Source: Curtobacterium sp. MCSS17_007
Lineage (GTDB): Bacteria; Actinomycetota; Actinomycetes; Actinomycetales; Microbacteriaceae
Assembly: GCF_003234175.2 (NCBI RefSeq)
Contig: NZ_CP126257.1
Span: 372,001-436,000, forward strand
Length of the DNA stretch: 64,000 nt
Reading direction: 5' to 3'
Part shown: in pieces, positions 2,145 through 60,433 of the stretch
Layout: the number at the start of each line of letters is the position of its first letter
How positions within the stretch are numbered: position 1 is the stretch's first letter
Position numbers and translations under genes: made by a program
The notes under the pieces: generated by a model
Told to the model about the DNA's origin: nothing
What the model saw: only the letters and a program-made list of their open reading frames with translations
Database searches by the model: none

Positions 2145-3058
2145 CCCAGACCGCACCACCGCGTCTGCCTCTCTACGACGCGACGGCCGAGGCCGCCTCC
2201 GGGGTCGTCATCGCGCGCTACTCCACCTCGTTCGGGCTCGCGAGCCGACTCCTCACGAAGGACACGCGCGAGCACATCCGCAACGTCTACGCCCTGGTCC
2301 GCGTGGCCGACGAGGTCGTCGACGGCCCCGCGACCGAGGCCGGGCTCGACCACGACCTGGCGCGGACGGTGCTCGACGAGCTCGAGGCGGACACGGAGCG
2401 CGCGATGGCGCTCGGGTTCTCGGTGAACCCCGTCGTGCACGCCTTCGCCCGCACCGCCCGGACGACCGGTTTCGGCGCCGAGCTCACGAAGCCGTTCTTC
2501 GCGTCGATGCGCATGGACCTCGAGCGCACGGAGCACGACCAGGAGTCGTTCGACCGCTACGTGTACGGCTCCGCCGAGGTCGTCGGCCTGATGTGCCTGC
2601 GGGCGTTCGTCCACCGCGCAGGGCGTCCGACGTTCGACGACGCCGTGCTCGTCGACGGTGCGCGGGCGCTCGGGGCGGCCTTCCAGAAGGTGAACTTCCT
2701 GCGTGACCTGCACGCCGACTTCGAGGTGCTCGGCCGCTCGTACTTCCCCGGCGTCGACATCCGCACCTTCGACGAGGCCACGAAGGAGCGCCTGGTCGCC
2801 GACGTGCAGGCGGACCTCGACCGTGCCGCGCTGACGGTCCCGCTGCTCCCGGCCGACGCCCGCAAGGCCGTCGCTCTCGCGCACGCGCTGTTCCAGGAGC
2901 TCAACGACCGCATCGCGGCCTGTCCGGCGGACCGGCTCATCGCCACGCGCGTCCGCGTCCCGAACCCGGTCAAGGCGCAGCTCGCCGCGCGCGTCCTCGC
3001 GGGTCGCGCCCCGCTGCCGTCCCGCGCCACCACCCACCGGTCTGGAGGCCGTGCATGA
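2141..3058 (+). CDS. crtB: Phytoene synthase
   Basis: This squalene/phytoene synthase condenses two GGPP molecules to 15-cis-phytoene. The 305-residue product has the two Mg2+-binding motifs DEVVD (57-61) and NFLRDLHAD (185-193) in the expected places. The start is GTG within GTGA, which overlaps the crtE stop and implies translational coupling. An upstream extension in this frame would overlap crtE by over 200 nt and matches nothing. The last codons and the following crtI ribosome-binding site lie in a copy of the dispersed GGAGGC repeat. Confidence 0.95.
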   Translation: MTQTAPPRLPLYDATAEAASGVVIARYSTSFGLASRLLTKDTREHIRNVYALVRVADEVVDGPATEAGLDHDLARTVLDELEADTERAMALGFSVNPVVHAFARTARTTGFGAELTKPFFASMRMDLERTEHDQESFDRYVYGSAEVVGLMCLRAFVHRAGRPTFDDAVLVDGARALGAAFQKVNFLRDLHADFEVLGRSYFPGVDIRTFDEATKERLVADVQADLDRAALTVPLLPADARKAVALAHALFQELNDRIAACPADRLIATRVRVPNPVKAQLAARVLAGRAPLPSRATTHRSGGRA

Positions 3059-3080
3059 CCCCGCCCCGTGCCTCCCGTCC
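3039..3080. repeat. GGAGGC-family element across the crtB-crtI junction
   Basis: The left half GGTCTGGAGGCCGTGC ends crtB and provides the crtI ribosome-binding site. The right half CCCCGTGCCTCCCGTCC lies in the first codons of crtI. GGAGGC (3044-3049) can pair with GCCTCC (3070-3075), which places the crtI start codon in the loop. The stem is imperfect outside these 6 bp. It may modulate crtI translation, but this is inference. Confidence 0.6.
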
Positions 3081-4755: not shown

Positions 4756-5117
4756 TGCCGGGGGCGTACCTCGCCGGACTCCTCGTGTCGATCGCCGGCA
4801 TCGCGGTGCTCGACGCCCGGTACCGGTTGTTCTTCTGGCGGAGCCCCCTGCGCGCCGCCGCGGTGATGGTGATCGGGCTCGTGTTCTTCATGGTGTGGGA
4901 CGTCGCTGGCGTGCACCTCGGCGTCTTCTTCATCGGGCAGAACGAGCTGCTGACGGGGGTGCTGCTCGCGCCGGAGGTCCCGCTCGAGGAGGTCTTCTTC
5001 CTCCTGCTGCTCTGCTGGACGACGATGGACCTGTTCGGTGCCCTGCGCCCGGTCGTGGCCAGGCGGCTCGACCGCTCGGGGGCTCCGGGCGGGTCCGACG
5101 AGGAGTCCCGCGCATGA
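4755..5117 (+). CDS. crtYe: C50 carotenoid cyclase, subunit Ye
   Basis: A 120-residue integral membrane protein with about three helices (residues 2-18, 32-50 and 76-90) and the lycopene-cyclase-domain motif PLEEVFFLLLLCW. In actinobacteria two such half-size proteins form a heterodimeric cyclase that closes the ends of the C50 chain. The start ATG overlaps the crtI stop as TGATG. Adjacent placement with a second subunit and crtEb makes the call firm. Sequence alone does not tell whether the rings are epsilon (decaprenoxanthin), gamma (sarcinaxanthin) or beta. Confidence 0.9.
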   Translation: MPGAYLAGLLVSIAGIAVLDARYRLFFWRSPLRAAAVMVIGLVFFMVWDVAGVHLGVFFIGQNELLTGVLLAPEVPLEEVFFLLLLCWTTMDLFGALRPVVARRLDRSGAPGGSDEESRA

Positions 5118-5518: not shown

Positions 5519-6441
5519 ACGCCACCACCGCCTCCAGGCCGTCGACCCTGCGCGCCCTGTTCGTGTCGTCGCGACCGATCAGCTGGGTGAACACGGCCTA
5601 CCCCTTCGGCGCCGCGTACCTGCTCGGCAGCGGGGTCGGCGTCGACGGCGGGGGCGGGTTCTCGCTCGTCGCGTTCCTGGTCGGGGTCGTGTACTTCCTC
5701 GTGCCGTACAACCTGGCGATGTACGGCATCAACGACGTGTTCGACTACGAGTCCGACCTGCGGAACCCGCGCAAGGGCGGGGTCGAGGGCGCGCTGCTCG
5801 ACAAGAGCGTCCACCGCACCACGCTGTGGGCCGTCGTCGTCACGAACGTGCCGTTCCTCGTGGCGCTCGTCGTGCTCGGCGCCCTGAGCGGCAACGGACC
5901 GTGGTCGTGGCTGGTGCTCGCGATCAGCGTCTTCGCGGTGATCGCGTACTCGGCGCCGGGACTGCGGTTCAAGGAGAAGCCGTTCCTCGACTCGCTGACG
6001 TCGTCGACGCACTTCGTCTCCCCGGCGGTCTACGGGCTCGCGCTCGCCGGGCCGCACTGGACGGGGCAGCTCGTCGCACTGTGCGTGGCGTTCTTCCTGT
6101 GGGGCGTGGCCTCGCACGCGTTCGGCGCCGTGCAGGACGTCCTGGCCGACCGCGCCGGCGGGATCGGCTCCGTGGCGACCGTCATCGGTGCCCGGGCGAC
6201 GGTGCGCCTGGCGTTCGTGGCGTACCTCGTGGCCGGTGTCGCGCTGCTGTTCTCGGACTTCCCGGGGCCGATCGCGGCGGTCGTCGTCGTGCCGTACGCG
6301 CTCAACGTGCTGCCCTGGTGGAACGTCACCGACGACGGCGCGGGATCGGCGAACGCGGGGTGGAAGCGCTTCCTCTGGATCAACTACCTGGCGGGGTTCA
6401 TCGTGACGATGGCCCTCATCGCCTACGCCTACGCGCACTGA
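5515..6441 (+). CDS. crtEb: Lycopene elongase (UbiA-type prenyltransferase)
   Basis: A 308-residue UbiA-superfamily membrane prenyltransferase that adds C5 units to both ends of lycopene to give flavuxanthin, the C50 precursor for CrtYe/Yf. The aspartate-rich motif NDVFDYESD (73-81) and a second acidic loop (DVLADRAGG) line the active site. Seven to nine membrane helices are evident. The start is GTG within GTGA, overlapping the crtYf stop, with GGAGGAGA 8 nt upstream. Residues 5-11 (TASRPST) are encoded by a 14-nt core of the dispersed repeat in reverse orientation (5530-5543). Last gene of the crt operon. Confidence 0.93.
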   Translation: MNATTASRPSTLRALFVSSRPISWVNTAYPFGAAYLLGSGVGVDGGGGFSLVAFLVGVVYFLVPYNLAMYGINDVFDYESDLRNPRKGGVEGALLDKSVHRTTLWAVVVTNVPFLVALVVLGALSGNGPWSWLVLAISVFAVIAYSAPGLRFKEKPFLDSLTSSTHFVSPAVYGLALAGPHWTGQLVALCVAFFLWGVASHAFGAVQDVLADRAGGIGSVATVIGARATVRLAFVAYLVAGVALLFSDFPGPIAAVVVVPYALNVLPWWNVTDDGAGSANAGWKRFLWINYLAGFIVTMALIAYAYAH

Positions 6442-6442
6442 C

Positions 6443-6463
6443 GCGCGGGTCGTCAACCCGCGC
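6443..6463 (+). terminator. Hairpin after the crt operon
   Basis: GCGCGGGT, 5-nt loop, ACCCGCGC: a perfect 8-bp stem starting 2 nt after the crtEb stop. There is no T-tract, which is usual in high-GC actinobacteria. Confidence 0.5.
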
Positions 6464-6487
6464 CCGCCCACGTCCCCCCGCGCCGTT

Positions 6488-6547
6488 CGTCGATGGAGCA
6501 GACGACGTCGGGTCGGGGGAACGCACTCGACGTCTGCTGCTCCATCG
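6488..6547. repeat. Long imperfect inverted repeat between crtEb and the oxidoreductase gene
   Basis: CGATGGAGCAGACGACGTCG (6491-6510) pairs with CGACGTCTGCTGCTCCATCG (6528-6547), 17 of 20 positions matching. The 14-mer CGTCGATGGAGCAG at its left end recurs on the other strand at 34634-34647, which marks a second dispersed repeat class. It could act as a terminator for the crt operon. Confidence 0.55.
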
Positions 6548-6649: not shown

Positions 6650-7693
6650 ATGACGGTCCGCATCATCCACGTCGGTCTCGGAGGCTGGGGCGGCAACTGG
6701 GCCCGCACCGCCATCCCGCAGGTCACCGAAGTGGAGGTGGTCGGGCTCGTCGACCCGGTCCCCGCGACGCTGGACGCCGTGCGCGAGGACCTGGACCTGC
6801 CCGAGTCGGCCGCGTTCGCCTCGCTGACCGAGGCACTCGCCGGGGTCGAGGCCGACGCCGTCGTGATCACCGCGCCGGCCGTGACGCACGTGCCGCTCGC
6901 GCTCGAGGCCCTCGAGGCCGGCAAGCACGTCCTGGTCGAGAAGCCGTTCGCGAACTCCACCGACGAAGCGCTCACCGCGGTCCGCCGGGCCGAGGAGCTC
7001 GGGCTCGTGCTGCAGGTCAGCCAGAACTACCGCTGGTACCCGGCGCCCCGCGCCGTCAAGGACCTGCTCGCGGCGAAGGAACTCGGCGAGCTGTCGGCGA
7101 TCAGCATCGACTTCCGGCAGTGGGACAACGACCAGCCCGTCGAGACCTACCCGCACTACCGGTTCCCGCACCCGATGATCAACGACATGGCGATCCACCA
7201 CTTCGACCTGCTCCGGATGATCACCGGGCTCGAGGCGGTCCGCGTGTACGCCCGGGCGTCGTACCCGAGCTACAGCAAGTACCAGGACGAGGCCGTCACG
7301 TCGATGATCATCGAGCTCGAGGACGGCCTGGTCGTGAGCTACCGGGGCAGCTGGCTCTCGCGTGCGCCCCGGACCGCGTGGGCGGGGGAGTGGAGCATCC
7401 AGGGCGAGGACGGCGAGATCTGGTTCACCAGCCGTGACGGGTCGCCGAGCGAGATCGCCGGTGACCGCGTGACGCTGCGGGCCGACCAGGACGCCGAGGC
7501 CGAGGCCGTGGACCTGCCGACGCTCGAGCACACCGACCGGCAGGGTGGGCTGCAGGCCTTCGCGCGCTCGGTCGAGGGTGGCCCGGCGCCCGAGACGAGC
7601 GGTCGTGACAACCTCCGGAGCCTCGCGCTGATGGAGGCAGCGGGACGCTCGGCCGCGTCCGGTCGCCCCGAGGACGTGGTCCTGCCCGAGTAG
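6650..7693 (+). CDS. Gfo/Idh/MocA family NAD(P)-dependent oxidoreductase
   Basis: A 347-residue protein with an N-terminal Rossmann fold (IIHVGLGGWGGNWARTAIP, residues 5-23), the family EKP motif (VEKPFANS) that carries the catalytic lysine, and the C-terminal substrate domain with DMAIHHFDLLRM. Members oxidise or reduce sugars, inositols and sugar derivatives. The substrate cannot be named from sequence or context, since no sugar gene is adjacent. AAGGAG 8 nt before the ATG supports the start. Probably monocistronic. Confidence 0.85.
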   Translation: MTVRIIHVGLGGWGGNWARTAIPQVTEVEVVGLVDPVPATLDAVREDLDLPESAAFASLTEALAGVEADAVVITAPAVTHVPLALEALEAGKHVLVEKPFANSTDEALTAVRRAEELGLVLQVSQNYRWYPAPRAVKDLLAAKELGELSAISIDFRQWDNDQPVETYPHYRFPHPMINDMAIHHFDLLRMITGLEAVRVYARASYPSYSKYQDEAVTSMIIELEDGLVVSYRGSWLSRAPRTAWAGEWSIQGEDGEIWFTSRDGSPSEIAGDRVTLRADQDAEAEAVDLPTLEHTDRQGGLQAFARSVEGGPAPETSGRDNLRSLALMEAAGRSAASGRPEDVVLPE

Positions 7694-7860: not shown

Positions 7861-7907
7861 GACGGTCGGGAGGCGCGGGGCGGCGCCGCCACGCGCCTCC
7901 CGTCCGT
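7861..7907. repeat. GGAGGC-family palindromic element
   Basis: CGGGAGGCGCGGGGCGGC (7867-7884) is followed directly by its near-complement GCCGCCACGCGCCTCCCG (7885-7902), with one mismatch in 18. The flanks GACGGT/CCGTC extend the family resemblance. It lies between convergent genes and is a likely bidirectional terminator. Confidence 0.75.
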
Positions 7908-7927
7908 CATCCCGCTCACCGTCACTG

Positions 7928-9346: not shown

Positions 9347-9349
9347 ACC

Positions 9350-10435: not shown

Positions 10436-10473
10436 CCGGCACCGCCCTCCACGGCCTGGAGGCGCGGTGCCGG
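10436..10473. terminator. GGAGGC-family hairpin after the YihY gene
   Basis: CCGGCACCGCCCTCCA pairs with TGGAGGCGCGGTGCCGG with one bulged base and a 5-nt loop (CGGCC). It begins 24 nt after the stop codon. The right half carries ACGGCCTGGAGGC, 13 of the 14 nt of the repeat core. Confidence 0.65.
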
Positions 10474-13515: not shown

Positions 13516-13578
13516 CGAACCACGAATCCGACATCGAACCAGGCCCGAGGGCTGGTTCGATGTCGGATCCGTGGTTCG
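13516..13578. terminator. 26-bp inverted repeat between convergent genes
   Basis: Two 26-nt arms (13516-13541 and 13553-13578) match at 25 of 26 positions. They start CGAACCACG and end ATCGAACCA, and the loop continues as GCCC/GGGC. It lies 27 nt after the DUF3151 stop and 29 nt after the lacZ stop on the other strand. It is a strong bidirectional terminator candidate, or a structured repeat of its own class. Confidence 0.7.
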
Positions 13579-16684: not shown

Positions 16685-17616
16685 CCCTTGACCGATCCTT
16701 CCGTGAGGCCCCCGCGCCAGAAGCGCTGCAGGACGATGATCGCGATCACCAGCGGGATCACCGAGACGAGCACGCCGCCGGTGGTGAGCTGGTAGAACTC
16801 TGGCAGACGATCGACCTGTGCCCGCCAGTTGTTGAGTCCCAGTGTGATCGGGTAGAGCTTCTGGTCCGCCAGCATGATGAGCGGCAGGAAGAAGTTGTTC
16901 CAGATGCCCACGACCTGGAACAGGAACACGGTCACGAGCGCCGGGGTCATCTGGCGGAGCACGATCGTGTGGAAGATCCGCAGCTCTCCGGCGCCGTCGA
17001 TGCGCGCCTGCTCGAGCAGCGCCGTGTCGACCGAGGCCGCCGCGTACACCCGGCACAGGAACAGCCCGAACGGCGAGACGAGGCTCGGGATGAGCACGCT
17101 CCAGTACGTGTCGGTCAGGCCCATCGTCGAGAAGAGCAGGAACAGCGGCAGCGCCGTCGCGGTCCCCGGCACGAGCACGCCGCCCAGGATCGTGCCGAAC
17201 ACGAGCTGCCGCCCGCGGAACTCGTACTTCGCGAGCGCGTACCCGCCGGCCGCGGCGAAGTAGGTCGCGAGGACCGCGCCGACGCCCGAGTACAGGACGC
17301 TGTTCGCGATCCAGCGGACGAAGATGCCGCCGTCGTACGAGAACACCTGCTGGATGTTGCTGAACAGCGCGAACTCGCCGCCGAACCAGAACCCGTTCGT
17401 CGCGAACAGGGCACCGGTGGTCTTCGTCGCCGCGATGACGACCCAGTACAGCGGCACGAGGAAGTAGACCGCGACGATCACCAGGATCGCGGTGACGACG
17501 ATCTGCGAGCGGGGAGAGCGATCGAGCTTGCGGCGCTGGTGCGCCGTGATCGACGTGGTGTCGACGGGCTCGGCGGCCTGCTTGGTCACCGGCGCCTCGA
17601 TGGCTTCACTGGTCAT
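16681..17616 (-). CDS. Sugar ABC transporter permease, MalG type
   Basis: 311 residues with a cytoplasmic N-terminus, six predicted helices and the EAA-loop signature DTALLEQARIDGAGELRIFHTIVLRQMTP (positions about 200-230). MalG/LacG-type permeases work as heterodimers with a MalF-type partner, here the gene just upstream. ATG overlaps the partner's stop as ATGA. No ATPase gene is in the operon, so a shared MsiK-type ATPase elsewhere is likely, as in other actinobacteria. Confidence 0.92.
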   Translation of the reverse strand: MTSEAIEAPVTKQAAEPVDTTSITAHQRRKLDRSPRSQIVVTAILVIVAVYFLVPLYWVVIAATKTTGALFATNGFWFGGEFALFSNIQQVFSYDGGIFVRWIANSVLYSGVGAVLATYFAAAGGYALAKYEFRGRQLVFGTILGGVLVPGTATALPLFLLFSTMGLTDTYWSVLIPSLVSPFGLFLCRVYAAASVDTALLEQARIDGAGELRIFHTIVLRQMTPALVTVFLFQVVGIWNNFFLPLIMLADQKLYPITLGLNNWRAQVDRLPEFYQLTTGGVLVSVIPLVIAIIVLQRFWRGGLTEGSVKG

Positions 17617-18716
17617 GCTTCCGCCCCCTTGCGGTCGGTCTGGAGGCCCGTGGCGGCTCCGGTGGTGGTGCTGCGGTTCGCGACACCGGTGGCGGGTCGC
17701 GACCCGGTGGCGGACGTGGCGCGCGTCTGGAGCGCACGCCGCGCCTCCAGGCCGTCGCGCTTGGCCCGCTTCTTCTGGTCGCGCTCGTTCTTCGGCGCAC
17801 GGTTCGTCAGCGCGAGGAACGCGAACGACAGGATGAACGCGGCCAGCGCGATGATCACGGCCTGCGCGCTCGCGACGCCGTACTCGTTGAACGCGAAGGC
17901 GTTCGTGTACGCCGCGTAGTTCGGCGTGTACTCGGTGTCGATGGCGGGCGCGACCGTCGACAGGATCTGCGGCTCGGCGAAGAGCTGCAGCGTGCCGATG
18001 ATCGAGAAGACCGTCGTGAGCACCAGGGCCGGTGCGATGAGCGGGATCTGGATCCGCCACGCGACCTGGAAGGGGCCGGCGCCGTCCATCTTCGCCGCCT
18101 CGTAGACCTCGCCGGGGATCGACTTGAGCTGCGCCACGATGATGAGCATGTTGTAGCCCGTGTACGTCCACGTGACGATGTTCGCGATCGACCACAGCAC
18201 GCTGTTCGCGCCGAGGAAGTCCGGCTGCAGCCCCATCGACTGCAGCAGCGACACGATCGGGGACAGGCCGGGCACGTAGAGGAACGACCACAGGATCGTG
18301 GCGATGACGCCGGGGACGCCGTACGGCATGAAGTAGACCGCGCGGAAGAAGGCGGGCCAGCGGGCGCTCGCCGACTCGAGCAGCAGCGCGAGGATCGTGC
18401 AGAGGACGATCATCACCGGCACCTGCACGATGCCGAACAGGAGCATGCGCCAGATCGAGCCGACGAACCCGGCGTCGTTCAGCGCGGTGACGTAGTTGTC
18501 GAAGCCGGCGAAGCGGCCGGTGACGCCGTCCTCGCCGAACAGGCCCTCGCGGTCGACGGTCGTGAAGCTCTGGAAGAGCGCACTGATGATCGGGATGATG
18601 AACGTCAGCACGAACAGGGCGAGGAACGGGGCGAGCAGGATCCACGGGGCGCGCTTCTGGGCGCTGGTGGCCTTGGTGCTCGTGCGGAAGCCGGAGCCCG
18701 GCTGCGTGGCGGTCAT
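17613..18716 (-). CDS. Sugar ABC transporter permease, MalF type, with repeat-derived C-terminal tail
   Basis: 367 residues. Six helices and the EAA loop (GEVYEAAKMDGAGPFQVAWRI) identify the MalF/LacF-type partner. The last helix ends at about residue 310. The following 50 or so residues (KRDGLEARRALQ... to ...TTTGAATGLQTDRKGAEA) are not part of the family. They are encoded by two halves of the dispersed palindromic repeat, GACGGCCTGGAGGC at one end and GGTCTGGAGGCC (reverse) at the other. The start ATG overlaps the binding-protein stop as ATGA. Confidence 0.92.
   Translation of the reverse strand: MTATQPGSGFRTSTKATSAQKRAPWILLAPFLALFVLTFIIPIISALFQSFTTVDREGLFGEDGVTGRFAGFDNYVTALNDAGFVGSIWRMLLFGIVQVPVMIVLCTILALLLESASARWPAFFRAVYFMPYGVPGVIATILWSFLYVPGLSPIVSLLQSMGLQPDFLGANSVLWSIANIVTWTYTGYNMLIIVAQLKSIPGEVYEAAKMDGAGPFQVAWRIQIPLIAPALVLTTVFSIIGTLQLFAEPQILSTVAPAIDTEYTPNYAAYTNAFAFNEYGVASAQAVIIALAAFILSFAFLALTNRAPKNERDQKKRAKRDGLEARRALQTRATSATGSRPATGVANRSTTTGAATGLQTDRKGAEA
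17637..17756. repeat. Two GGAGGC-family half-elements inside the lac permease gene
   Basis: GGTCTGGAGGCC (17637-17648, + strand) and GACGGCCTGGAGGC (17743-17756, - strand) face each other about 95 nt apart. Both lie within the C-terminal codons of the MalF-type permease gene and are read through in frame. The second is an exact copy of the 14-nt core also found at 5530, 30665 and 57634. Confidence 0.7.
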
Positions 18717-21820: not shown

Positions 21821-21880
21821 ACGCAACGTCGGCGGTTCCTCGCAGCGGTACAGCGCTGCGAGCAACCGCCGACGTTGCGT
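21821..21880. terminator. 27-bp inverted repeat between convergent genes
   Basis: Arms 21821-21847 and 21854-21880 match at 26 of 27 positions, with a 6-nt loop GTACAG. The left arm begins ACGCAACGTCGGCGGTT. It starts 22 nt after the baeRF stop and ends 41 nt before the MFS stop on the other strand. Strong bidirectional terminator candidate; sequence unrelated to the GGAGGC family. Confidence 0.75.
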
Positions 21881-21921
21881 CCCGCCGTCGCCGGTCCCAC
21901 GCCCTGGCCGGACGTCGCGCG

Positions 21922-23127
21922 TCAGTCGTGGGAGACGTCGCTGCGCGGGACGACCGACAGCGCGAGCAAGGGCAGCGCGGCCACGATCGCGAACGACGCC
22001 GCGAAGCCGAGTGCCCCGACCAACGCGCCGACCCCCGGACCGACGGCGCTCGCCGCGAGGAACTGCCCGGTGTTCTGCGCCCCGAGCGCCCGGCCTGACC
22101 AGGACGCTCCCGCCGCCTCGGCCACCGACGTGTACGCGAGCCCGTTGTCGGCGACGGTGACGCTCGTCGCGACGACGAGGAACACCGCTGCGGGCGCCCA
22201 GTGCGACACGTCGACGAGCGCGAGCGCGCCCATCACCGCGGCGGCCGCCACCGCGACGATCCGCAGCGGCCCGACCCGGGAACCCGCGCGATCACTCCAC
22301 GCGCCGACGATGATCCGGCCGACGGCACCGACGAACTGCGAGACCCCCACGAGCAGCCCTGCCGCGGGGGTGGACCACCCGAGGCCCACGAGCCACACCA
22401 GGCCGTAGGTCGAGAGGGTGAACTGCGGCACCACGAGGAGCACGGAGACCAGGTGCACCCGCCACAGGAACGTCGACGCGCGGTAGGGGTTCGTGGGTGA
22501 CGCAGACCGCGCTGCGGGTGCCGCTGGCGGCCGCGGCGGGTCGGCGATCCCGACGGCGCAGAGCACGGTGAGCACGGCGCAGAGCGCGAACGGCAGGAGC
22601 AGGGCGCTCCGGATGCCGTCCGTCTCGGTGAGCAGGGGAACCGTCACGGCCGCGAGCGTGACACCGAGCGGCTGCGACATCTGCCGGATGCCCATCGCCA
22701 GACCCCGGCGCTCCTTCGGGAACCACCCGACGACGACCCGCCCGCTCGCCGCGTTCGTCGACGCACTCGTCATGCCGGCGGCCAGGAACGCGATGCCGAG
22801 CAGGAGCGGGTCTCCGGCCGTGATCCACGCACCGACGACGGTCAGGGTGGTCAGCGCGAGACCACCGGCGATCACCACGCGTTCACCGACCCGATCGGTC
22901 ACCGCACCCCAGGCGATGAGGGTGAGGACGAGCCCGATCGTCGGCGCAGCAGCGAAGAGCCCGGCGGACGCGAACGGCATCCCCTGCGCGAGCAGGTGTG
23001 GGATGAGGAGCGCCGGCGCGGAGACGACGAGGGTCCCCGCGGCCTGCGCGGCGACACCGAGTGCGAGCATCGTCCACGCCCGGGCCGGGACGACGGTCGG
23101 TGGCGCGGTGGCGGTCTGCACGGGCAC
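21922..23127 (-). CDS. MFS transporter
   Basis: 401 residues with about 12 membrane helices and MFS loop signatures (WGAVTDRVGERVVIAGG after helix 2, and FPKERRGLAMGIRQMSQPLG). This is the size of small-solute or anion MFS permeases. The substrate is unknown. The GTG start is supported by the signature beginning at once, but its Shine-Dalgarno sequence is weak. It is transcribed away from a GntR regulator gene, with a perfect operator between the two, so the pair is almost certainly a regulator and its target. Confidence 0.88.
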   Translation of the reverse strand: MPVQTATAPPTVVPARAWTMLALGVAAQAAGTLVVSAPALLIPHLLAQGMPFASAGLFAAAPTIGLVLTLIAWGAVTDRVGERVVIAGGLALTTLTVVGAWITAGDPLLLGIAFLAAGMTSASTNAASGRVVVGWFPKERRGLAMGIRQMSQPLGVTLAAVTVPLLTETDGIRSALLLPFALCAVLTVLCAVGIADPPRPPAAPAARSASPTNPYRASTFLWRVHLVSVLLVVPQFTLSTYGLVWLVGLGWSTPAAGLLVGVSQFVGAVGRIIVGAWSDRAGSRVGPLRIVAVAAAAVMGALALVDVSHWAPAAVFLVVATSVTVADNGLAYTSVAEAAGASWSGRALGAQNTGQFLAASAVGPGVGALVGALGFAASFAIVAALPLLALSVVPRSDVSHD

Positions 23128-24015: not shown

Positions 24016-24069
24016 GACCGCGGGAGGGCACGAGCGGGGGAGGACCCGACCCGTGCCTCCCGGCCGGTC
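24016..24069. repeat. GGAGGC-family element, convergent junction
   Basis: GACCGCGGGAGGGCACG (24016-24032) pairs imperfectly with CGTGCCTCCCGGCCGGTC (24052-24069). Positions 24048-24069, read on the - strand, are a 22-nt exact match to a stretch inside the beta-mannosidase gene (59795-59816). The element lies 3' of the GntR gene and touches the stop codon of the small minus-strand gene. Confidence 0.65.
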
Positions 24070-24365: not shown

Positions 24366-24428
24366 CCTAGGATGGTGCGGCCGCGCACCGGCGCGGCGGC
24401 GAGGCGCACGTCGGACGGGAGGCACGGC
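24366..24428 (+). promoter_or_regulatory. Promoter and repeat-derived ribosome-binding site of the LacI gene
   Basis: TAGGAT (24366-24371) is a plausible -10 box. Just before the ATG lies GACGGGAGGCACGGC, a half-element of the dispersed repeat, in which GGGAGG serves as Shine-Dalgarno sequence. Confidence 0.45.
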
Positions 24429-29727: not shown

Positions 29728-30650
29728 GCACTGTCGCAGTGAGAACACAAGAACAGGCCGCCCCGTCCAAGTGGCGCGCCGCCGCCCGCCAGTTCGGCGT
29801 CGTCTGGAGCAACACCAAGGCCCGCGTCGGCATCTGCATCCTCGGCGCCTTCGTCCTCATCGCCCTGTTCGCCCCGCTCCTCGCCCCCTACGGCGCGAGC
29901 CAGAACGGCTTCGAACGGAACGCCGACGCCACGTGGGCGCACTGGATGGGCACCACCGCCGCCGGCGAGGACGTCCTCTCCCAGTTGATCTACGGCGCCC
30001 GGGTCTCCGTGCTCGTCGGTGCGGTCGCGGGCTTCCTGTCCACGCTCGTCGCCGTCGCGATCGGTCTCAGCTGGGGCTACATCCGCGGCTGGGTCGCCGA
30101 GGTCATCGGGTTCATCGTGAACCTGTTCCTCGTCATCCCGGGGCTCCCGCTCATGATCGTCATCGCGGCGTACCTGCAGAACGGCGGCATCGCGGTGATC
30201 ATCGCCGTGATCGTCGTCACCGGCTGGGCGTGGGGCGCGCGCGTCCTCCGCAGCCAGACCCAGTCCCTGCGCAGCCGCGACTTCGTCACCGCCGCACAGT
30301 TCTCCGGCGACGGCGCGACCCGCATCGTCTTCCGCGAGATCCTGCCGAACATGACGAGCCTGATCGTCGGGAGCTTCTTCGGCGCGGCGACGAGCGCGAT
30401 CCTCGCCGAGGCCGGCCTCGAGTTCCTGGGGCTCGGCGACTCGTCGATCGTCAGCTGGGGCACGATCCTCTACTGGGCGCAGAACTCGAACGCACTGCTC
30501 ACCGGCCAGTGGATCCTGCTCTTCGCCCCGGGCCTCTGCATCGCCCTCCTGGCGATGAGCCTGACCCTGATCAACTTCGGCGTCGACGCCGTGTCCAACC
30601 CGCGGCTGCGCGAGGGCGCGCGCCGCAAGCGCAAGGAGGTCACCGCATGA
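29724..30650 (+). CDS. Dpp/Opp-type ABC permease, DppC type
   Basis: 308 residues, DppC type, with the N-terminal cytoplasmic stretch before helix 1, the extracytoplasmic loop HWMGTTAAGEDVLSQLIYGARVS and the conserved LRSRDFVTAAQFSGDGATRI motif that contacts the ATPase. ATG overlaps the preceding stop as ATGA. Confidence 0.93.
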   Translation: MSTVAVRTQEQAAPSKWRAAARQFGVVWSNTKARVGICILGAFVLIALFAPLLAPYGASQNGFERNADATWAHWMGTTAAGEDVLSQLIYGARVSVLVGAVAGFLSTLVAVAIGLSWGYIRGWVAEVIGFIVNLFLVIPGLPLMIVIAAYLQNGGIAVIIAVIVVTGWAWGARVLRSQTQSLRSRDFVTAAQFSGDGATRIVFREILPNMTSLIVGSFFGAATSAILAEAGLEFLGLGDSSIVSWGTILYWAQNSNALLTGQWILLFAPGLCIALLAMSLTLINFGVDAVSNPRLREGARRKRKEVTA

Positions 30651-32419
30651 GCGGCGCAACCAGCGACGGCCTGGAGGCCCGTGGCGGCACCGCCACGCGC
30701 CTCCCGTCCGACACGACCCAGCACGACGTCCTGCTCGACGTCCGCGACCTGTCCGTCGTCTACGAGTCGGCCGGCCAGACGGCCGTCCAGGCCGTCGACC
30801 ACGTCTCCTTCCAGCTGCGCAAGGGCGAGTTCGTCGGCCTGGTCGGCGAATCGGGTTCCGGGAAGTCGACCCTCGGCTACGCGCTCACCCGGCTGCAGAA
30901 GCCCCCGGCGCGGACCAACGGCGGCAGCATCGTCTTCGGTGGGGCGGACATCCGCGACCTCGACGACGAGGCACTCCGGCAGCAGCGCCAGGGCGGCTTC
31001 GCGATGGTGCTGCAGTCCGGCATGAACGCGCTCAACCCGGTGCGCACGGTCCGCAACCACTTCATCGACGTCTTCAAGGCGCACGGCCACGTGCCGCGTG
31101 AGCGGTGGGACGCCCGGATGCGCGAGCTGATCGGCAAGGTGAAGCTGCCCGAGACGATGCTCGCGCGGTACCCCGGGGAGCTCTCCGGCGGCATGCGGCA
31201 GCGCGTCTCGATCGCGCTCGCGTTGTCCCTCGAACCGCAGCTCATGGTGTTCGACGAGCCGACCACGGCCCTCGACGTCCTCGTGCAGCACGCGGTGATG
31301 GACACGATCATCGAGCTGCAGCGCTCCGAGGGGTTCACCGCGATCCTCATCAGCCACGACCTCGGCATCGTGCTCGAGGCCACCGAGCGCGTGCTCGTCA
31401 TGCACGAGGGGCGGATCGTCGAGGACGGCCGCTCGCTCGAGGTCCTCCGCGACCCGCAGGACGACTACACGAAGATGCTGCTGTCGCACTACGCGGACCC
31501 GCGCGCGGAGATCGTCAGCCTGCCCGGGTTCCCCGACCGGTCACTGCGATCGTCCGAGGGGGCGACGCGGCAGGAGACGACGTCGTCGTTCAGCACCGTC
31601 GGCTCCCGCGAGCGCTCCGCCGCGAAGAACCCGATCGTCGTCGACCACCTCGTCAAGACGTACCCGGCACCCCGTCGTGGCGAGCAGCCCGTGCAGGCCG
31701 TCCGCGACGTGTCGTTCACCCTCGAGCCCGGGCAGTCGCTCGCCCTCGTCGGCCAGTCCGGTTCGGGCAAGTCGACCATCGCGAAGATGCTCACCGGCGT
31801 CGAGCAGCCGACTTCGGGCACGGTCCGCTTCGGTGACACGGACGTGACGAAGCTCGGGAGGCGGGGGCTGAAGGACCTGCGCTCCGAGGTGCAGATGGTG
31901 TTCCAAGACCCGTACGCGGCGCTCAACCCGCTGCACACCGTGGAGTACATCCTGTCCCGGCCGATCGCGAACTACACCGGGCTCCGCGGGCGCGATGCCC
32001 GGCGCCGGATGCTCGAGATCCTCGAGACCGTCGGCCTGACGCCCGTCGAGCAGTTCGCGCAGAAGCTCCCGCACCAGCTCTCCGGCGGGCAGCGGCAGCG
32101 CGTGGTCATCGCCCGGGCGCTCGCGAGCGACCCGCAGGTGATCATCGCCGACGAGCCCGTCTCGATGCTCGACGTCACCCTGCGGGCCGGCGTGCTCGCG
32201 CTGCTCGAGGACCTGCGGGAGCAGTGGGGCGTCTCGCTCCTCTACATCACGCACGACCTGCTGAGTGCCCGGCTCATCACCGACGACATCATGGTGCTGC
32301 ACGACGGCGCCGTGGTCGAGCGGGGCCGGACGGCCGAGGTGCTCCAGCACCCGCAGGACGACTACACGGTGGCGCTGCTGGACGCGGTGCCGAACCCGCG
32401 GAGGACGCTGCTGGCATGA
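30647..32419 (+). CDS. Fused DppD-DppF ABC ATPase with repeat-encoded N-terminus
   Basis: 590 residues, two ATPase cassettes in one chain. The first has Walker A GESGSGKST (67-75), LSGGMRQRVSIALAL and the Walker B region LMVFDEPTTALD. The second has GQSGSGKST, LSGGQRQRVVIARAL and VIIADEPVSMLD. Fused DppDF ATPases are common in actinobacterial oligosaccharide or peptide importers. Residues 7-21 (DGLEARGGTATRLPS) are encoded by a 45-nt copy of the dispersed palindrome inserted in frame just before the first cassette. ATG overlaps the permease stop as ATGA. Confidence 0.94.
   Translation: MSGATSDGLEARGGTATRLPSDTTQHDVLLDVRDLSVVYESAGQTAVQAVDHVSFQLRKGEFVGLVGESGSGKSTLGYALTRLQKPPARTNGGSIVFGGADIRDLDDEALRQQRQGGFAMVLQSGMNALNPVRTVRNHFIDVFKAHGHVPRERWDARMRELIGKVKLPETMLARYPGELSGGMRQRVSIALALSLEPQLMVFDEPTTALDVLVQHAVMDTIIELQRSEGFTAILISHDLGIVLEATERVLVMHEGRIVEDGRSLEVLRDPQDDYTKMLLSHYADPRAEIVSLPGFPDRSLRSSEGATRQETTSSFSTVGSRERSAAKNPIVVDHLVKTYPAPRRGEQPVQAVRDVSFTLEPGQSLALVGQSGSGKSTIAKMLTGVEQPTSGTVRFGDTDVTKLGRRGLKDLRSEVQMVFQDPYAALNPLHTVEYILSRPIANYTGLRGRDARRRMLEILETVGLTPVEQFAQKLPHQLSGGQRQRVVIARALASDPQVIIADEPVSMLDVTLRAGVLALLEDLREQWGVSLLYITHDLLSARLITDDIMVLHDGAVVERGRTAEVLQHPQDDYTVALLDAVPNPRRTLLA
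30665..30709 (+). repeat. GGAGGC-family element in frame within the DppDF gene
   Basis: A 45-nt unit with left arm GGAGGCCCGTGGCGG, 2-nt loop and right arm CCGCCACGCGCCTCC (one mismatch in 15), framed by GACGGCCT and CGTCC. It begins 18 nt after the start codon and adds 15 residues. It starts with the exact 14-nt core GACGGCCTGGAGGC. Confidence 0.85.
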
Positions 32420-34508: not shown

Positions 34509-34522
34509 CGCGACCGGGTGGC

Positions 34523-34564
34523 GGACGGGAGGCCCGCGGCGATGCCGCCACGGGCCTCCCGTCC
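34523..34564. terminator. GGAGGC-family hairpin after the beta-glucosidase gene
   Basis: GGACGGGAGGCCCGCGGC, loop GATGCC, GCCACGGGCCTCCCGTCC, one mismatch in 18. It begins 15 nt after the stop of the operon's last gene. Confidence 0.75.
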
Positions 34565-34571
34565 GTTCTGC

Positions 34572-43145: not shown

Positions 43146-43157
43146 CCGTGCCTGCTC

Positions 43158-43211
43158 GGGATGACGATGGCCCCCGTTCGGAGCAATCCGAACGGGGGCC
43201 ATCGTCATCCC
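43158..43211. terminator. Perfect 25-bp hairpin, bidirectional terminator
   Basis: Two 25-nt arms are exact complements around a GCAA tetraloop. The left arm starts GGGATGACGATGGCCCCCG. It lies 12 nt after the dehydrogenase stop and 45 nt after the BY-kinase stop on the other strand. The best terminator in the window. Confidence 0.85.
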
Positions 43212-43256
43212 TGGGAGGCCGTGTTCGTGTCGACGCGGCGTACTCGACGGAGACCG

Positions 43257-53394: not shown

Positions 53395-53418
53395 CGCTGC
53401 GCGACCAACACCAAGACC

Positions 53419-53470
53419 GGTCTGGAGGCTCGGTGCGGCTCCGTCAGGAACCGTCACCGGGCCTCCAGAC
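53419..53470. terminator. GGAGGC-family hairpin between dnaJ and hspR
   Basis: GTCTGGAGGCTCGGTG (53420-53435), 19-nt loop, CACCGGGCCTCCAGAC (53455-53470), one mismatch in 16. It starts 26 nt after dnaJ and ends 39 nt before hspR, so it may attenuate transcription into the repressor gene. Confidence 0.65.
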
Positions 53471-53509
53471 TGTCTCCCAGGACCACGAGGACGACGGAAG
53501 GGACGCGTC

Positions 53510-54891: not shown

Positions 54892-54897
54892 TGGGCG

Positions 54898-56046: not shown

Positions 56047-56060
56047 GGCGAGTGCAGACC

Positions 56061-56100
56061 GACGGGAGGCCCGTGGCTGCGCAGCCACGGGCCTCCCGTC
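56061..56100. terminator. Perfect 40-nt GGAGGC-family palindrome after the methyltransferase gene
   Basis: GACGGGAGGCCCGTGGCTGC is followed at once by its exact complement. It begins 15 nt after the stop codon and 37 nt from the stop of the convergent aldo/keto reductase gene. The cleanest copy of the family in the window. Confidence 0.85.
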
Positions 56101-56136
56101 CGTCCGTCGGTCACCTCGTCAGGTGACCTGTCCCGC

Positions 56137-56967: not shown

Positions 56968-57070
56968 GCCGCCATGCAACCAAACGGGGCCCAGGAGGCA
57001 TTCCGGCAACGTCCAGCCGGGCGCGTCCCCCTGCGCAGACCGGACGGTCGAGCGTCGTGCGCCGGCTGGT

Positions 57071-57481: not shown

Positions 57482-57751
57482 CCCACCCTGCCATGCGCCA
57501 CCGCCGAGCGCGGACCCGCCGCCGGGCGGAGGCGGGCGGCAAGGTCCGCGTACTAGCATCGCCGAGCACCCCCGCGCGCGACGAGCGATCGTCCGCGCGC
57601 GCGGACGCGACGATGCTGGGCGACCGGTGCCGTGCCTCCAGGCCGTCTCCGCGGCCATGGGCGCGACCGGCGGTCCGGCATCCGGGCGCCGGCCGCAGCC
57701 TGCCGCCCGACCGCGTCCGCACCGCCGAAGTCCGCCCAGCAAAGGACCCGC
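57482..57751. other. 270-nt divergent intergenic region with a repeat half-element
   Basis: It holds the start side of the small conserved gene and the leader of the mannosidase gene. TACTAGCAT near 57551 is a possible -10 region. GACGGCCTGGAGGC lies on the - strand at 57634-57647 as a lone half of the dispersed repeat. No gene is seen. Confidence 0.4.
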
Positions 57752-60433
57752 ATGACCCTCGAGCGCGAGGAACTCCGCGACGACTGGACCGTGACGATCG
57801 CCGGCGACCAGCCGCCGGTCGGTGCACCGGACGGCATCGCGGGACGCACCATCCCCGCCACGGTGCCGGGTCAGGTGCACACCGACCTCGAGCGGGAGGG
57901 TCTCGTCGTGGACCCGCTCTTCGACCGCAACGAGCCCGCTGCCGCCTGGGTGGGCCGCGCGGACTGGTCGTACCGCCGCACGGTGGACGTGGCCCCGCGG
58001 GGCTTCGAACGCGTCGACCTGGTGTGCGAGGGGCTCGACACCGTCGCCGAGCTGAGCCTGGACGGCGTCGTCGTCGGAACCACGCGCAACATGCACCGCC
58101 GCTACCGCTTCGACCTCAACGACGTGCCCGGCCCGTCGGGCGAACGGGAGCTCGAGATGCTCTTCGAGTCGCCGTACCGCGAGGCCGGCCGTGTCGCCGC
58201 CCGCGCCGGCTCGATGCCGGGTCCGTACGACGAGCCGTTCCCGTACGTCCGCAAGATGGCCTCGAACTTCGGGTGGGACTGGGGTCTGACCGCGGTCACG
58301 AGCGGGCCGTGGCGTCCGGTCGCGATCGAGCGCTGGTCCACCGCCCGGCTGGCCGAGGTGCGTCCGCTCGTCGACGTCGAGGCCGGCGAGGGCGTCCTCG
58401 ACGCCCACATCACGGTCGAGCGGTCCGGCATGAACGACCTCGACCAGGACGGCGAGGACGACGACCTCGTGCTCGTCGTGACGGTGAGCGGCCCGACGGT
58501 CGACGGCGGTACGACCCGGCAGCGCTCCCGTGCGCAGCTGACCCCGCAGAGCGACGAGACGGTCGTCACCGTTCGGGTGCCCGACGTCCGCCGGTGGTGG
58601 CCCCGGGGTTACGGGGAGCAGGTGCAGTACGACGTGACGGTCGAGCTGCAGACGGTGGACGGCGAGGTCCTTGACCGCCGGACGAGCCGCACCGGGTTCC
58701 GCTCGACCCGGATCGACACCGCCGCCGACGAGATCGGCAAGCCCTTCACCGTCGTGGTGAACGGCACGGTGATCGACGTCCGGGGTGTCAACTGGATCCC
58801 CGACGACGTCATCGTGTCGCGGGTCGACCGCGCCCGGATCGAGGACCGGCTGCGTGCCGCCGCGGACCTGCACGTGAACCTCGTGCGGGTGTGGGGTGGC
58901 GGCGTCTACGAGTCGCACGACTTCTACGACGTGTGCGACGAGCTCGGCCTGCTCGTGTGGCAGGACTTCCCGTTCGCCTGCTCGGCCTACCCGGAGATCG
59001 AGCCGATCCGCAGCGAGGTCATCGCCGAGGCCCGGGACAACGTCGCCCGCCTCGCCGGGCACCCGTCGCTCGTGGTGTGGAACGGCAACAACGAGAACAT
59101 CTGGCTGCACGACGCCGACGGGTGGGGCGAGGAGCTCGGCGACCGCGGCTGGGGTCTCGACTACTACCTCGACCTGCTGCCGACGATCGTCGACGCGGTC
59201 GACCCGTCGCGCTTCTACACGGTCGCCTCACCGTGGTCGGGGTCGGAGAGCCTGCCCGCGAACCACGTCGACCACGAGACGCACCACTCGTGGGACGTCT
59301 GGAACCGCCTGTCGGACGACCACTACCGCGACTCCGTGCCGCGGTTCGTCTCCGAATTCGGGTGGCAGGCCCCGCCCGCGTGGCGCACGCTCCGCGATGC
59401 GGTCTCCGACGAGCCGATGCGCGTCGACTCGCCCGGGGTCGTCCACCACCAGAAGGCCGACGACGGCATGGGCAAGCTCGCGCGCGGCATCGCGCCGCGC
59501 TTCGGCGCCGTGGACCCGGGCGACCTGGACCGCTGGCACTACCTGACGCAGCTCCAGCAGACCCGCGCGATCGCGACGGGTGTCGAACACTGGCGCACGC
59601 ACTGGCCGCGCAACTCCGGGGTCGTGGTGTGGCAGCTGAACGACCTTTGGCCGGTGTCCTCGTGGTCGGCGATCGACTCGGCGGGGCGGCTCAAGCCGCT
59701 CGCGCACGAGCTGCGTCGCCTGTACGACGACGTGCTGCTGACGATCCGTCCGGTCGCCACCCGCGCGACGGCCGCCGGTCCGGCGGACGGCGACGACCGG
59801 CCGGGAGGCACGGGTCACCCCGACCGTCCGACCCACGACGGCGAGACGGCGGAGCTGGCCGACACGCTCTCGCTCGGCGTCTCGCCGGGCGCCTTCGGCA
59901 ACGCCCCGATCGAGGTCGCCGTCCGGTCGTCGCGCACCGGCATCGACAGCGTCGTCCGTGTCCGGCGCATCGCGCTCTCGGGAGCGATCCTGGCCGAGGT
60001 CACCCTGCCGGTGCAGCTGTCCGCGTCCGGGGTCGCCGTGGTGGCGCTGCCGGAGTCGGTGGGCGTCGTCGACGACCCGACGAACGAGCTGGTCGTCGCC
60101 GACATGGACTGGCACCGTGCGGTGTGGACGCCGTCGCCGGACCGCGAGATGCGCTGGCAGCCGGCGCGGTACCGGACCTCGGTGACACCGGCACCCGACG
60201 GCGACGGCCACGACCTGGTCGTCGAGGCGGACTCGCTCGTGCGCGACCTGCTGCTCCAGCCGGACCGCCTCGCGCCGACCGGCACCGTCGACCGCGGGTT
60301 CATGACCCTGCTGCCGGGGGAGCGTGTGGGCTTCCGGCTGCGCGGGCTGACCGCGCAGGACGTGGCGGCGATCGCGAACGCTCCGGTGACGTGGACGCTC
60401 GACAAGGTCCTCGCTCTCGGTATTTCAGACTGA
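57752..60433 (+). CDS. Beta-mannosidase, GH2
   Basis: 893 residues. GH2 layout: sugar-binding domain with DDWTVTIAGD and VPGQVHTDLEREGLV, Ig-like domain, then TIM barrel with acid/base Glu448 in VWNGNNENIW and nucleophile Glu535 in RFVSEFGWQAPP. The NGNNEN and SEFGWQ forms mark beta-mannosidases rather than galactosidases. No signal peptide, so it would act on imported manno-oligosaccharides, although no transporter is adjacent. Residues about 682-690 (DRPGGTGHP) lie in a poorly conserved loop encoded by a repeat half-element. AAAGGA precedes the ATG. Confidence 0.9.
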   Translation: MTLEREELRDDWTVTIAGDQPPVGAPDGIAGRTIPATVPGQVHTDLEREGLVVDPLFDRNEPAAAWVGRADWSYRRTVDVAPRGFERVDLVCEGLDTVAELSLDGVVVGTTRNMHRRYRFDLNDVPGPSGERELEMLFESPYREAGRVAARAGSMPGPYDEPFPYVRKMASNFGWDWGLTAVTSGPWRPVAIERWSTARLAEVRPLVDVEAGEGVLDAHITVERSGMNDLDQDGEDDDLVLVVTVSGPTVDGGTTRQRSRAQLTPQSDETVVTVRVPDVRRWWPRGYGEQVQYDVTVELQTVDGEVLDRRTSRTGFRSTRIDTAADEIGKPFTVVVNGTVIDVRGVNWIPDDVIVSRVDRARIEDRLRAAADLHVNLVRVWGGGVYESHDFYDVCDELGLLVWQDFPFACSAYPEIEPIRSEVIAEARDNVARLAGHPSLVVWNGNNENIWLHDADGWGEELGDRGWGLDYYLDLLPTIVDAVDPSRFYTVASPWSGSESLPANHVDHETHHSWDVWNRLSDDHYRDSVPRFVSEFGWQAPPAWRTLRDAVSDEPMRVDSPGVVHHQKADDGMGKLARGIAPRFGAVDPGDLDRWHYLTQLQQTRAIATGVEHWRTHWPRNSGVVVWQLNDLWPVSSWSAIDSAGRLKPLAHELRRLYDDVLLTIRPVATRATAAGPADGDDRPGGTGHPDRPTHDGETAELADTLSLGVSPGAFGNAPIEVAVRSSRTGIDSVVRVRRIALSGAILAEVTLPVQLSASGVAVVALPESVGVVDDPTNELVVADMDWHRAVWTPSPDREMRWQPARYRTSVTPAPDGDGHDLVVEADSLVRDLLLQPDRLAPTGTVDRGFMTLLPGERVGFRLRGLTAQDVAAIANAPVTWTLDKVLALGISD
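59795..59816 (+). repeat. GGAGGC-family half-element inside the mannosidase gene
   Basis: This 22-nt stretch, containing CCGGGAGGCACGGG, is identical to the complement of 24048-24069. It falls in a hydrophilic, low-complexity linker of the C-terminal region and is read in frame. Confidence 0.6.

What the first reader, a model, noticed from the sequence alone, without database searches (positions are those of the whole stretch)
3039..59816. Dispersed palindromic repeat family (GGAGGC/GCCTCC) in terminators, ribosome-binding sites and coding regions
About a dozen copies or half-copies share GGAGGC flanked by GACGGCCT, GACGG or GGTCT on one side and CCGTGGCGGC-like sequence on the other. The 14-mer GACGGCCTGGAGGC occurs exactly at 5530, 17743, 30665 and 57634; by simple arithmetic a given 14-mer is expected far less than once in 64 kb. 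Full copies: 7861-7907, 10436-10473, 24016-24069, 30665-30709, 34523-34564, 53419-53470, 56061-56100. Split or half copies: 3039-3080, 5530-5543, 17637-17756, 24414-24428, 57634-57647, 59795-59816. One sequence family thus sits in non-coding, regulatory and protein-coding contexts, which recalls the Rickettsia palindromic elements but in an actinobacterium. No transposase is seen, so the way it spreads is open.
Basis: partly seen in the sequence, partly recalled or inferred. Interest (0 to 1): 0.78.

Follow-up and report, generated by a model that had tools for sequence, protein, structure and literature searches.

The report
Genus-wide paired DNA motif in Curtobacterium
A short DNA motif is repeated through the genomes of one genus of plant and soil bacteria, mostly as mirror-image pairs just after genes; the copies hold fixed places rather than jumping, and the pattern resembles the tags that some bacteria use to recognise DNA of their own kind.

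Summary
The repeat family is real and genome-wide. Its unit is a 15-nt arm, CGG[A/C/T]C[G/T]GGAGGCNCG. In 584 kb sampled, 85 of 135 exact arms lie in inverted pairs, 31 stand alone in genes and 19 alone between genes. Of 61 pairs in 464 kb, 51 have an exact 26-nt offset, giving 48-nt palindromes, mostly just after stop codons.

The family is confined to Curtobacterium: 12-297 palindromes in each of 66 genus genomes; 0-2 in each of 292 genomes of other genera.

It is not now behaving as a mobile element. For 16 own pairs with synteny in both relatives tested, 29 of 32 comparisons show a pair at the same place, and no Y1 (REP-type) transposase was found. Yet two sites lack it in other genera, so copies were gained near the base of the genus.

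Outer arms vary without compensation, inner stems covary; arms inside genes exceed synonymous shuffles tenfold (33 vs 3.2).

I favour a DNA-level recognition motif resembling uptake sequences, at modest confidence. Against it: solitary arms are hardly more conserved than flanks. A transposase-less REP-like family is almost as likely.

The parts
3039..3080 (.). two arms facing each other across the junction of a squalene/phytoene synthase gene and an amine-oxidoreductase-type gene; the left arm lies before and the right arm just after the ATG at 3055
   Evidence: profile 27.7 bits for the right arm; same place in G342 (29.1 bits) and G317 (28.5); Pfam of both genes
5530..5543 (-). 14-mer copy near the start of a UbiA-family gene; weak, below the profile threshold
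   Evidence: exact 14-mer; not listed at 13 bits; Pfam UbiA
7861..7908 (.). 48-nt palindrome, convergent gap
   Evidence: pair26, 57.8 bits; present in G342 and G317
10450..10465 (+). solitary arm inside a different hairpin (10436-10473)
   Evidence: 24.7 bits; same place in G342 (17.7) and G317 (21.6)
17634..17756 (.). two arms 101 nt apart in the C-terminal tail of a permease gene (17613-18716, minus strand)
   Evidence: pair101, 45.9 bits; both arms in G342 and G317; Pfam BPD_transp_1
24047..24069 (-). solitary arm in an imperfect hairpin (24016-24069)
   Evidence: 22.3 bits; half-site present in G342 and G317 intervals
24410..24427 (+). solitary arm whose GGAGG lies at ribosome-binding distance from the ATG of a LacI-family gene (24429)
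   Evidence: 23.0 bits; aligned in 9 genomes; Pfam LacI
30665..30712 (.). 48-nt palindrome read in frame as residues in the N-terminal tail of an ABC-transporter ATPase (gene 30647-32419)
   Evidence: present in 31 of 31 Curtobacterium genomes; absent in 15 of 15 loci not labelled Curtobacterium
34520..34567 (.). 48-nt palindrome, convergent gap after a GH1 gene
   Evidence: full pair in 13 of 31 genomes; interior subfamily differs between genomes
53412..53474 (.). longer palindrome (offset 37) between dnaJ and a MerR-type (hspR-like) gene
   Evidence: orthologous copies, inverted loop in G301; no element in the gap of G163, G295 and five genomes of other genera
56057..56104 (.). 48-nt palindrome, convergent gap
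   Evidence: pair26, 45.2 bits; present in G342, none in the G317 interval
57634..57647 (-). solitary arm in a divergent gap
   Evidence: 23.9 bits; same place in G342 and G317
59795..59818 (+). solitary arm inside a GH2-family gene (57752-60433)
   Evidence: 16.9 bits; half-sites mapped near this place in four relatives on the same strand of the gene alignment; Pfam GH2

Best explanation
The unit is a short DNA recognition motif (15-nt core CGG[A/C/T]C[G/T]GGAGGCNCG, roughly 950 sites per genome if the sampled density holds), specific to Curtobacterium. Most likely it works like an uptake signal: something that handles incoming DNA prefers DNA carrying the motif, so that motif-bearing alleles arise by point mutation or local copying, spread by homologous recombination, and persist in permissive places of the core genome. 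Inverted pairs after stop codons would serve twice, as two motif copies and as a hairpin that ends or protects transcripts; this second use would keep the inner stem paired. Shown: the motif, its genus restriction, fixed sites, sequence-constrained arms, excess inside genes on both strands beyond codon and protein constraint, and core-genome bias. Inferred: that the recogniser acts in DNA uptake, and that the hairpins act on transcripts. Not shown: any binding protein, competence of this organism, or uptake preference.
For: Half-sites of 17 bits or more: 167 in 584 kb, 0 with the reversed profile. CGGCCGGGAGGCNCG: own 109 against control 0; deep-branching G295 165 against 1; [quoted passage not shown] In 487 CDS (475.5 kb) 33 exact cores against 3.17 in 60 synonymous shuffles (largest 8), 0.97 with codon order shuffled, 0 for the reversed pattern; both strands, no polarity by chromosome half (26+/28- and 27+/19-, 100 of 109 places listed). 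Core DNA 42 half-sites in 130.6 kb against 1 in 29.6 kb accessory in the own genome (P 0.0016); pooled over three related genomes 131 in 375.8 kb against 6 in 78.0 kb. Outer arms: paired positions 2-13 no more often matched than chance columns would give, so each arm is constrained as sequence. Tandem pairs show no sense/antisense difference, 15 vs 17, P 0.79. A ComEC gene is present. Natural transformation is reported in two other Microbacteriaceae (PMC11577799, passages). Neisserial uptake sequences are described as core-enriched, in permissive places and often inverted pairs acting as terminators (PMC2397512, passages).
Against: Solitary arms are hardly more conserved than their flanks between species: coding 0.909 vs 0.897, intergenic 0.908 vs 0.865. 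Exact arms are mostly paired (85 of 135), and pairs have one preferred spacing with interior subfamilies shared among loci, which suggests copying of a whole 48-nt unit. Intergenic solitary arms look partly like decayed pairs: the mate position at offset 26 scores -18.2 against a baseline of -36.9, P 8e-8; coding ones only slightly, -28.9 vs -37.1, P 0.002. Density, about 0.29 per kb, is well below that of known uptake sequences. Core bias is also expected of any old repeat, and in one of five segments (G317a) it is reversed. Evenness of spacing is only suggestive: P 0.017 for all sites, 0.083 for pairs. ComEC is near-universal: the same search rings in 10 of 14 control genomes. No receptor was sought.
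Confidence: 0.38

Rival explanations
1. A REP-like palindrome family without a dedicated Y1 transposase. A 48-nt unit was copied to several hundred gene ends around the origin of the genus by an enzyme now lost or not recognised, was kept there as 3'-end hairpins, and now evolves by gene conversion among copies. Solitary arms are mostly decayed copies.
For: Gains at the dnaJ-hspR and opp sites relative to basal species or other genera; one preferred spacing and shared interiors; wholesale change of interior subfamily at a fixed site with flanks kept, e.g. G000 452594: left flank 35/37, right flank 53/58 identical while the interior changes type in G342; tandem copy-number change at one locus, own 2, G317 2, G342 4; one extra pair beside an existing one in G317 only; excess at convergent and tandem gaps, 24 of 53 and 24 of 125 gaps of 60 nt or more, against 1 of 69 divergent; intergenic solitary arms resemble decayed pairs.
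Against: No Y1_Tnp in the complete genome; no new insertion seen between species at 85-94% identity apart from the extra neighbouring pair; does not by itself explain 33 arms inside genes against 3.2 expected, most of them without a mate, nor why outer arms stay fixed in sequence without compensatory change.
Confidence: 0.33
2. Binding site of a sequence-specific chromosome-organising or transcription-ending protein, with a dimer or two proteins on each palindrome.
For: Arms constrained as sequence and used symmetrically; genome-wide spread without strand polarity; strong bias to gene ends.
Against: No candidate protein identified; arms inside genes and near-absence from accessory DNA are not specifically predicted.
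Confidence: 0.17
3. Ordinary hairpin terminators that happen to share sequence.
For: Stable hairpins, -31.5 to -47.9 kcal/mol for five window copies; 30 of 32 tandem pairs begin within 65 nt of the stop codon; inner stem positions covary.
Against: Only 2 of 114 outward flanks have 4 or more T in the first 8 bases; other strong hairpins at convergent gaps of the same genome have different sequences, so a hairpin alone does not demand this arm; solitary arms inside genes are unexplained.
Confidence: 0.08

Closest known systems
DNA uptake sequences (DUS, Neisseriaceae) and uptake signal sequences (USS, Pasteurellaceae)
   Same: Short motif over-represented genome-wide, group-specific with variant forms, on both strands, in permissive coding and intergenic places, enriched in core DNA, frequent as inverted pairs at gene ends (compared with passages of PMC2397512 and PMC3630211)
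   Different: Other phylum and cell envelope; about 0.29 sites per kb by profile; one strongly preferred pair spacing with a further paired inner stem; solitary copies hardly more conserved than flanks; no uptake test or receptor
REP elements (GTAG-tagged, RAYT-associated) and CGTC-tagged REPs
   Same: Short palindromes in high copy, mainly downstream of genes between convergent or tandem genes, rare in divergent gaps; CGTC REPs also lack a dedicated transposase (PMC3733652, abstract and passages)
   Different: No GTAG end, no Y1 transposase; no unpaired tag at one end, since the GACG/CGTC ends belong to the palindrome; 48 nt instead of 20-40; symmetric; arms also occur singly inside genes
Rickettsia palindromic elements (RPE)
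   Same: A palindrome that can be read in frame inside genes and occurs between genes too
   Different: Only 3 of 56 pairs are coding; RPE length and main placement inside ORFs are recalled, not taken from a call

Membership tests
DNA uptake sequence (DUS/USS) | short motif far above chance over the genome and restricted to a related group | tested here: met
   109 vs 0 in own genome; 0-6 in eight genomes of other genera; 167 vs 0 by profile in 584 kb
DNA uptake sequence (DUS/USS) | present in genes on both strands beyond protein constraint | tested here: met
   33 vs 3.17 in synonymous shuffles
DNA uptake sequence (DUS/USS) | enriched in core, rare in recently acquired DNA | tested here: met
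   own 42 in 130.6 kb vs 1 in 29.6 kb; one of five segments goes the other way
DNA uptake sequence (DUS/USS) | copies themselves more conserved than their surroundings | tested here: inconclusive
   arms of pairs 0.92 vs flanks 0.83; solitary arms 0.909 vs 0.897 coding and 0.908 vs 0.865 intergenic
DNA uptake sequence (DUS/USS) | promotes DNA uptake or transformation | not testable with these tools
   needs an uptake assay; only a ComEC gene was found
REP / REPIN (RAYT-associated) | REP-associated Y1 tyrosine transposase in the genome | tested here: not met
   PF01797: 0 matches in own complete genome; rings in 5 of 14 control genomes
REP / REPIN (RAYT-associated) | GTAG tag at one end | tested here: not met
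   the 57 aligned 48-mers begin mostly GACGG and end CCGTC
REP / REPIN (RAYT-associated) | extragenic, mainly downstream of genes | tested here: met
   49 of 56 pairs in convergent or tandem gaps, 2 divergent, 3 coding, 2 at an edge
CGTC-tagged REP | unpaired CGTC at one end of an 8-9 bp stem | tested here: not met
   ends are symmetric and part of a 24-bp palindrome; definition from PMC3733652 passages
Rickettsia palindromic element | inserted in frame mainly inside ORFs | tested here: not met
   3 of 56 pairs coding; the definition is recalled
intrinsic terminator | GC hairpin followed by a T tract | tested here: not met
   2 of 114 flanks with 4 or more T in the first 8
Rfam families | match at the gathering score | tested here: not met
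   0 matches in the window

The most novel reading that the evidence does not exclude
Curtobacterium has a genome-wide uptake-signal system, the first in a Gram-positive or actinobacterial genus: a 15-nt motif marks own DNA for preferential uptake or recombination, with a CGGCCGGGAGGC form prominent in a deep-branching clade and a CGGACGGGAGGC form in palindromes at gene ends.
Probability: 0.33. Interest if true: 0.86.

Novelty: new variant of a known kind. Interest (0 to 1): 0.66.

Why it matters
Uptake sequences were described as a peculiarity of Neisseria and the Pasteurellaceae (PMC3630211, passage). A comparable motif in an actinobacterium would be an independent origin of the same kind of DNA self-recognition and could be tested with one uptake assay. 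If it is instead a REP-like family, it is a transposase-less one whose copies are fixed in place yet stay alike across some 200 sites and change interior type at fixed sites, which makes the upkeep of palindromic repeats directly testable. Either way the genus has a natural series for this: 12 copies in G163, 48 in G295 and G335, and 108-297 in the other 63 genomes.

Tried and rejected
Chance: rejected. RAYT-driven REPs: no Y1_Tnp. Known RNA family: no Rfam match in the window. Strand-polar motif of the Chi or KOPS kind (recalled types): no polarity. RNA-level function of one arm: no sense/antisense asymmetry in 32 tandem pairs. Ordinary T-tailed terminator: 2 of 114 flanks. Similar palindromes in other genera: in 240 kb of four other genera (12 stretches, five genomes) only two long palindromes passed my filter and neither was of this family; single weak half-sites of 13-17 bits occurred in five of the 12 stretches. 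The extra 120-190 nt between oppB and oppC in G301, G302 and G322 is not explained by this family: no element of 13 bits or more was listed there. Literature: ten searches showed no description of this repeat in their listings; (motif strings) found 26 papers, 20 listed, none of whose titles concerns these bacteria, none opened, 6 not seen; one search found 36 papers, 20 listed. Most subscription papers are not in that library.

Limits: start codons and gene ends come from a simple caller of my own, not from an annotation. Comparisons among related genomes are not independent, and one search counts each pair of genomes in both directions. Covariation of inner positions may partly reflect two related subfamilies. 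Rates come from 584 kb, 17.6% of the genome (464 kb in the earlier counts); L004 was dropped from the 584 kb set because it overlaps L041 and L042. A k-mer look at G163 was planned but did not run (loaded no G163 sequence).
Full report
What was checked. The window is 372001-436000 of a complete 3.31 Mb chromosome. The genus is Curtobacterium: relative G317 has the length of Curtobacterium sp. MR_MD2014 (3,443,800, and the abstract shown in the listing), and named loci share contig lengths with several relatives (for example 295057, 252010 and 521228).

Anatomy. A profile built from the window arms and refined on 464 kb gave a half-site with core CGG-M-C-K-GGAGGC-N-CG. Of 61 arm pairs within 110 nt, 51 have GGAGGC and GCCTCC offset by exactly 26, making 48-nt palindromes such as GACGGACGGGAGGC-N20-GCCTCCCGTCCGTC. 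In 584 kb there are 167 half-sites of 17 bits or more against 0 with the reversed profile; at 13 bits 216 against 7. Exact cores number 135: 85 in pairs, 31 solitary in genes, 19 solitary between genes. Two interior types recur, CGGTGCCAGCTGGCACCG and CGTGGCGGNNCCGCCACG.

Two layers of constraint. In 57 palindromes of the own genome the outer arm positions 2-13 are nearly invariant and their pairing is what independent columns would give (for example 50 vs 48.5, 43 vs 43.2, 52 vs 50.3), so departures are not compensated. Inner positions 14, 17, 18, 21 and 23 are paired far more than independent columns would be (42 vs 24.5, 40 vs 25.6, 39 vs 23.1, 45 vs 26.2, 39 vs 22.6). The outer arm is thus kept as sequence, the inner stem as a pairing; part of the inner covariation may come from the two related subfamilies.

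Place. Of 56 pairs with offset 20-40 in 464 kb, 25 lie in convergent and 24 in tandem gaps, 3 in gene starts, 2 in divergent gaps and 2 at an edge. Among gaps of 60 nt or more, 24 of 53 convergent, 24 of 125 tandem and 1 of 69 divergent hold a pair. In tandem gaps 30 of 32 pairs start within 65 nt of the stop codon, and the arm in the sense of the gene scores no better than the other (15 vs 17, P 0.79). T tracts are lacking (2 of 114 flanks).

Distribution. With up to 3 mismatches the palindrome has 226 matches in the own genome and 8-246 in the other six genus members of a family-wide sample; 15 of 292 genomes of other genera have 1 or 2 matches, about the level of the control (9 of 292 have 1). 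A shorter form is found in 66 of 66 genus genomes: G163 12, G295 and G335 48 each, the other 63 between 108 and 297. The solitary-type core CGGCCGGGAGGCNCG has 109 matches in the own genome, 165 in G295, 161 in G335, 10 in G163, 44-158 in six further genus genomes, and 0-6 in eight genomes of other genera.

Fixed, not moving. In the own 204 kb compared with G342 and G317, 16 of 18 own pairs have syntenic flanks in both; 29 of 32 comparisons show a pair, 2 one arm, 1 nothing (the 56065 site in G317, where a 2.3-kb stretch intervenes). The converse scan gave one pair in G317 without counterpart in the two others, next to an existing one. In ten relatives the window copies from 24 to 60 kb mostly recur at the same place; a pair at about window 21824-21927 was found only in G337 and G329. 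Over 31 genomes the opp N-terminal copy is present in 31, while the 34528 site holds a full pair in 13; in the other 18, read by eye, 15 keep a GGAGGC soon after the stop codon and 3 (G322, G325, G343) do not.

Gained near the base of the genus. Between dnaJ and the hspR-like gene the gap is short and has no element in G163 (49 nt), G295 (16), G004 (57), G087 (36), G035 (75), G055 (8) and G058 (5), lengths being those between the tblastn matches; G318 has a hairpin with a variant arm. The opp ATPase has the palindrome-coded N-terminal tail in the six Curtobacterium loci looked at (five pairs, one single arm) and no element in 15 of 15 others, namely 13 of named other genera and two labelled only Microbacteriaceae bacterium, one of which starts near a contig end; 21 of the 80 loci fetched were looked at. 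Insertion and local rewriting of a variable tail cannot be told apart there.

Turnover in place. At two orthologous sites the interior changes wholesale between the two types while the flanks stay alike (own 34528, and G000 452594 with flanks 35/37 and 53/58). The loop of the dnaJ-hspR copy is inverted in G301. A tandem array has 2, 2 and 4 copies in own, G317 and G342. Over 18 orthologous comparisons the outer 14 nt are 92% identical, the inner 20 nt 84% and the 60-nt flanks 83%; the GGAGGC of the 5' arm is identical in all 18.

Arms inside genes. In 487 complete CDS (475.5 kb) there are 33 exact cores; keeping the proteins and the codon pool but shuffling synonymous codons gives 3.17 on average (60 shuffles, largest 8); shuffling codon order gives 0.97; the reversed pattern 0. 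They occur on both strands. The excess is at the DNA level and is not explained by protein sequence or codon use. Most of the 29 coding solitary arms show no mate at offset 26 (only one above 0 bits), though the mean is slightly raised (P 0.002); the 19 intergenic ones are clearly raised (P 8e-8), as if partly decayed pairs.

Core bias and spacing. Own genome: 42 half-sites in 130.6 kb shared with relatives, 1 in 29.6 kb not shared (P 0.0016); five segments of three genomes pooled: 131 in 375.8 kb and 6 in 78.0 kb, with one segment (G317a, 14 in 46.8 kb vs 2 in 4.9 kb) the other way; these are not independent. Sites are somewhat more even than a control that draws gene gaps for pairs and random places for single arms: coefficient of variation 0.67 vs 0.94, P 0.017; for pairs alone P 0.083.

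Reading. No Y1 transposase was found and ComEC is present. Sequence-fixed arms used singly and in pairs on both strands, a group-specific motif, core bias and inverted pairs at gene ends together resemble neisserial and Pasteurellaceae uptake sequences more than any other kind I know, and natural transformation is reported for two Microbacteriaceae (PMC11577799, passages). The main results against this are that solitary arms are hardly more conserved than flanks (0.909 vs 0.897 in genes), that most exact arms are in pairs of one spacing with shared interiors, and that the density is low. A REP-like family without transposase, spread near the base of the genus and kept alike by gene conversion, explains the palindromes well but not the arms in genes. 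I put the two at 0.38 and 0.33. A mixed history, palindromes copied as units whose arms are recognised by a protein, is possible and would satisfy most observations.

Literature. PMC3733652 was seen as abstract and passages; PMC2397512, PMC3630211 and PMC11577799 as passages; all other papers only in search listings. In ten searches no description of this repeat was seen.

Noticed in passing
window 13516-13578; L016 about 6661-6765: A second near-perfect palindrome family at convergent gene ends (CGAACCACGAATCCGACATCGAACCAG...), unrelated to the GGAGGC family; its words are among the most over-represented 10-mers between genes.
   Followed up: no
L018 about 7216-7352 and elsewhere in the own-genome sample: A third palindrome family with CCAGGTACGCCCG words, over-represented between genes.
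   Followed up: no
window 21821-21880, 43150-43219; L018 about 1895: Further strong hairpins of other sequence at convergent gaps; at about window 21824-21927 G337 and G329 have a GGAGGC-family pair instead.
   Followed up: partly
L086 9430-9680 (G295); G342 C1 about 483.9-484.1 kb; own C1 about 470.4 kb: Tandem arrays of the palindrome with a period near 52 nt and differing copy number between species.
   Followed up: partly
G301, G302, G322 between oppB and oppC orthologues: About 120-190 extra nucleotides at the gene junction that are absent in the window genome, without a GGAGGC-family element.
   Followed up: no
window about 35.6-49.7 kb: A lower-GC stretch without synteny to G342 and G317 over most of its length, containing no palindrome and one weak half-site (46685, 15.2 bits).
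   Followed up: partly
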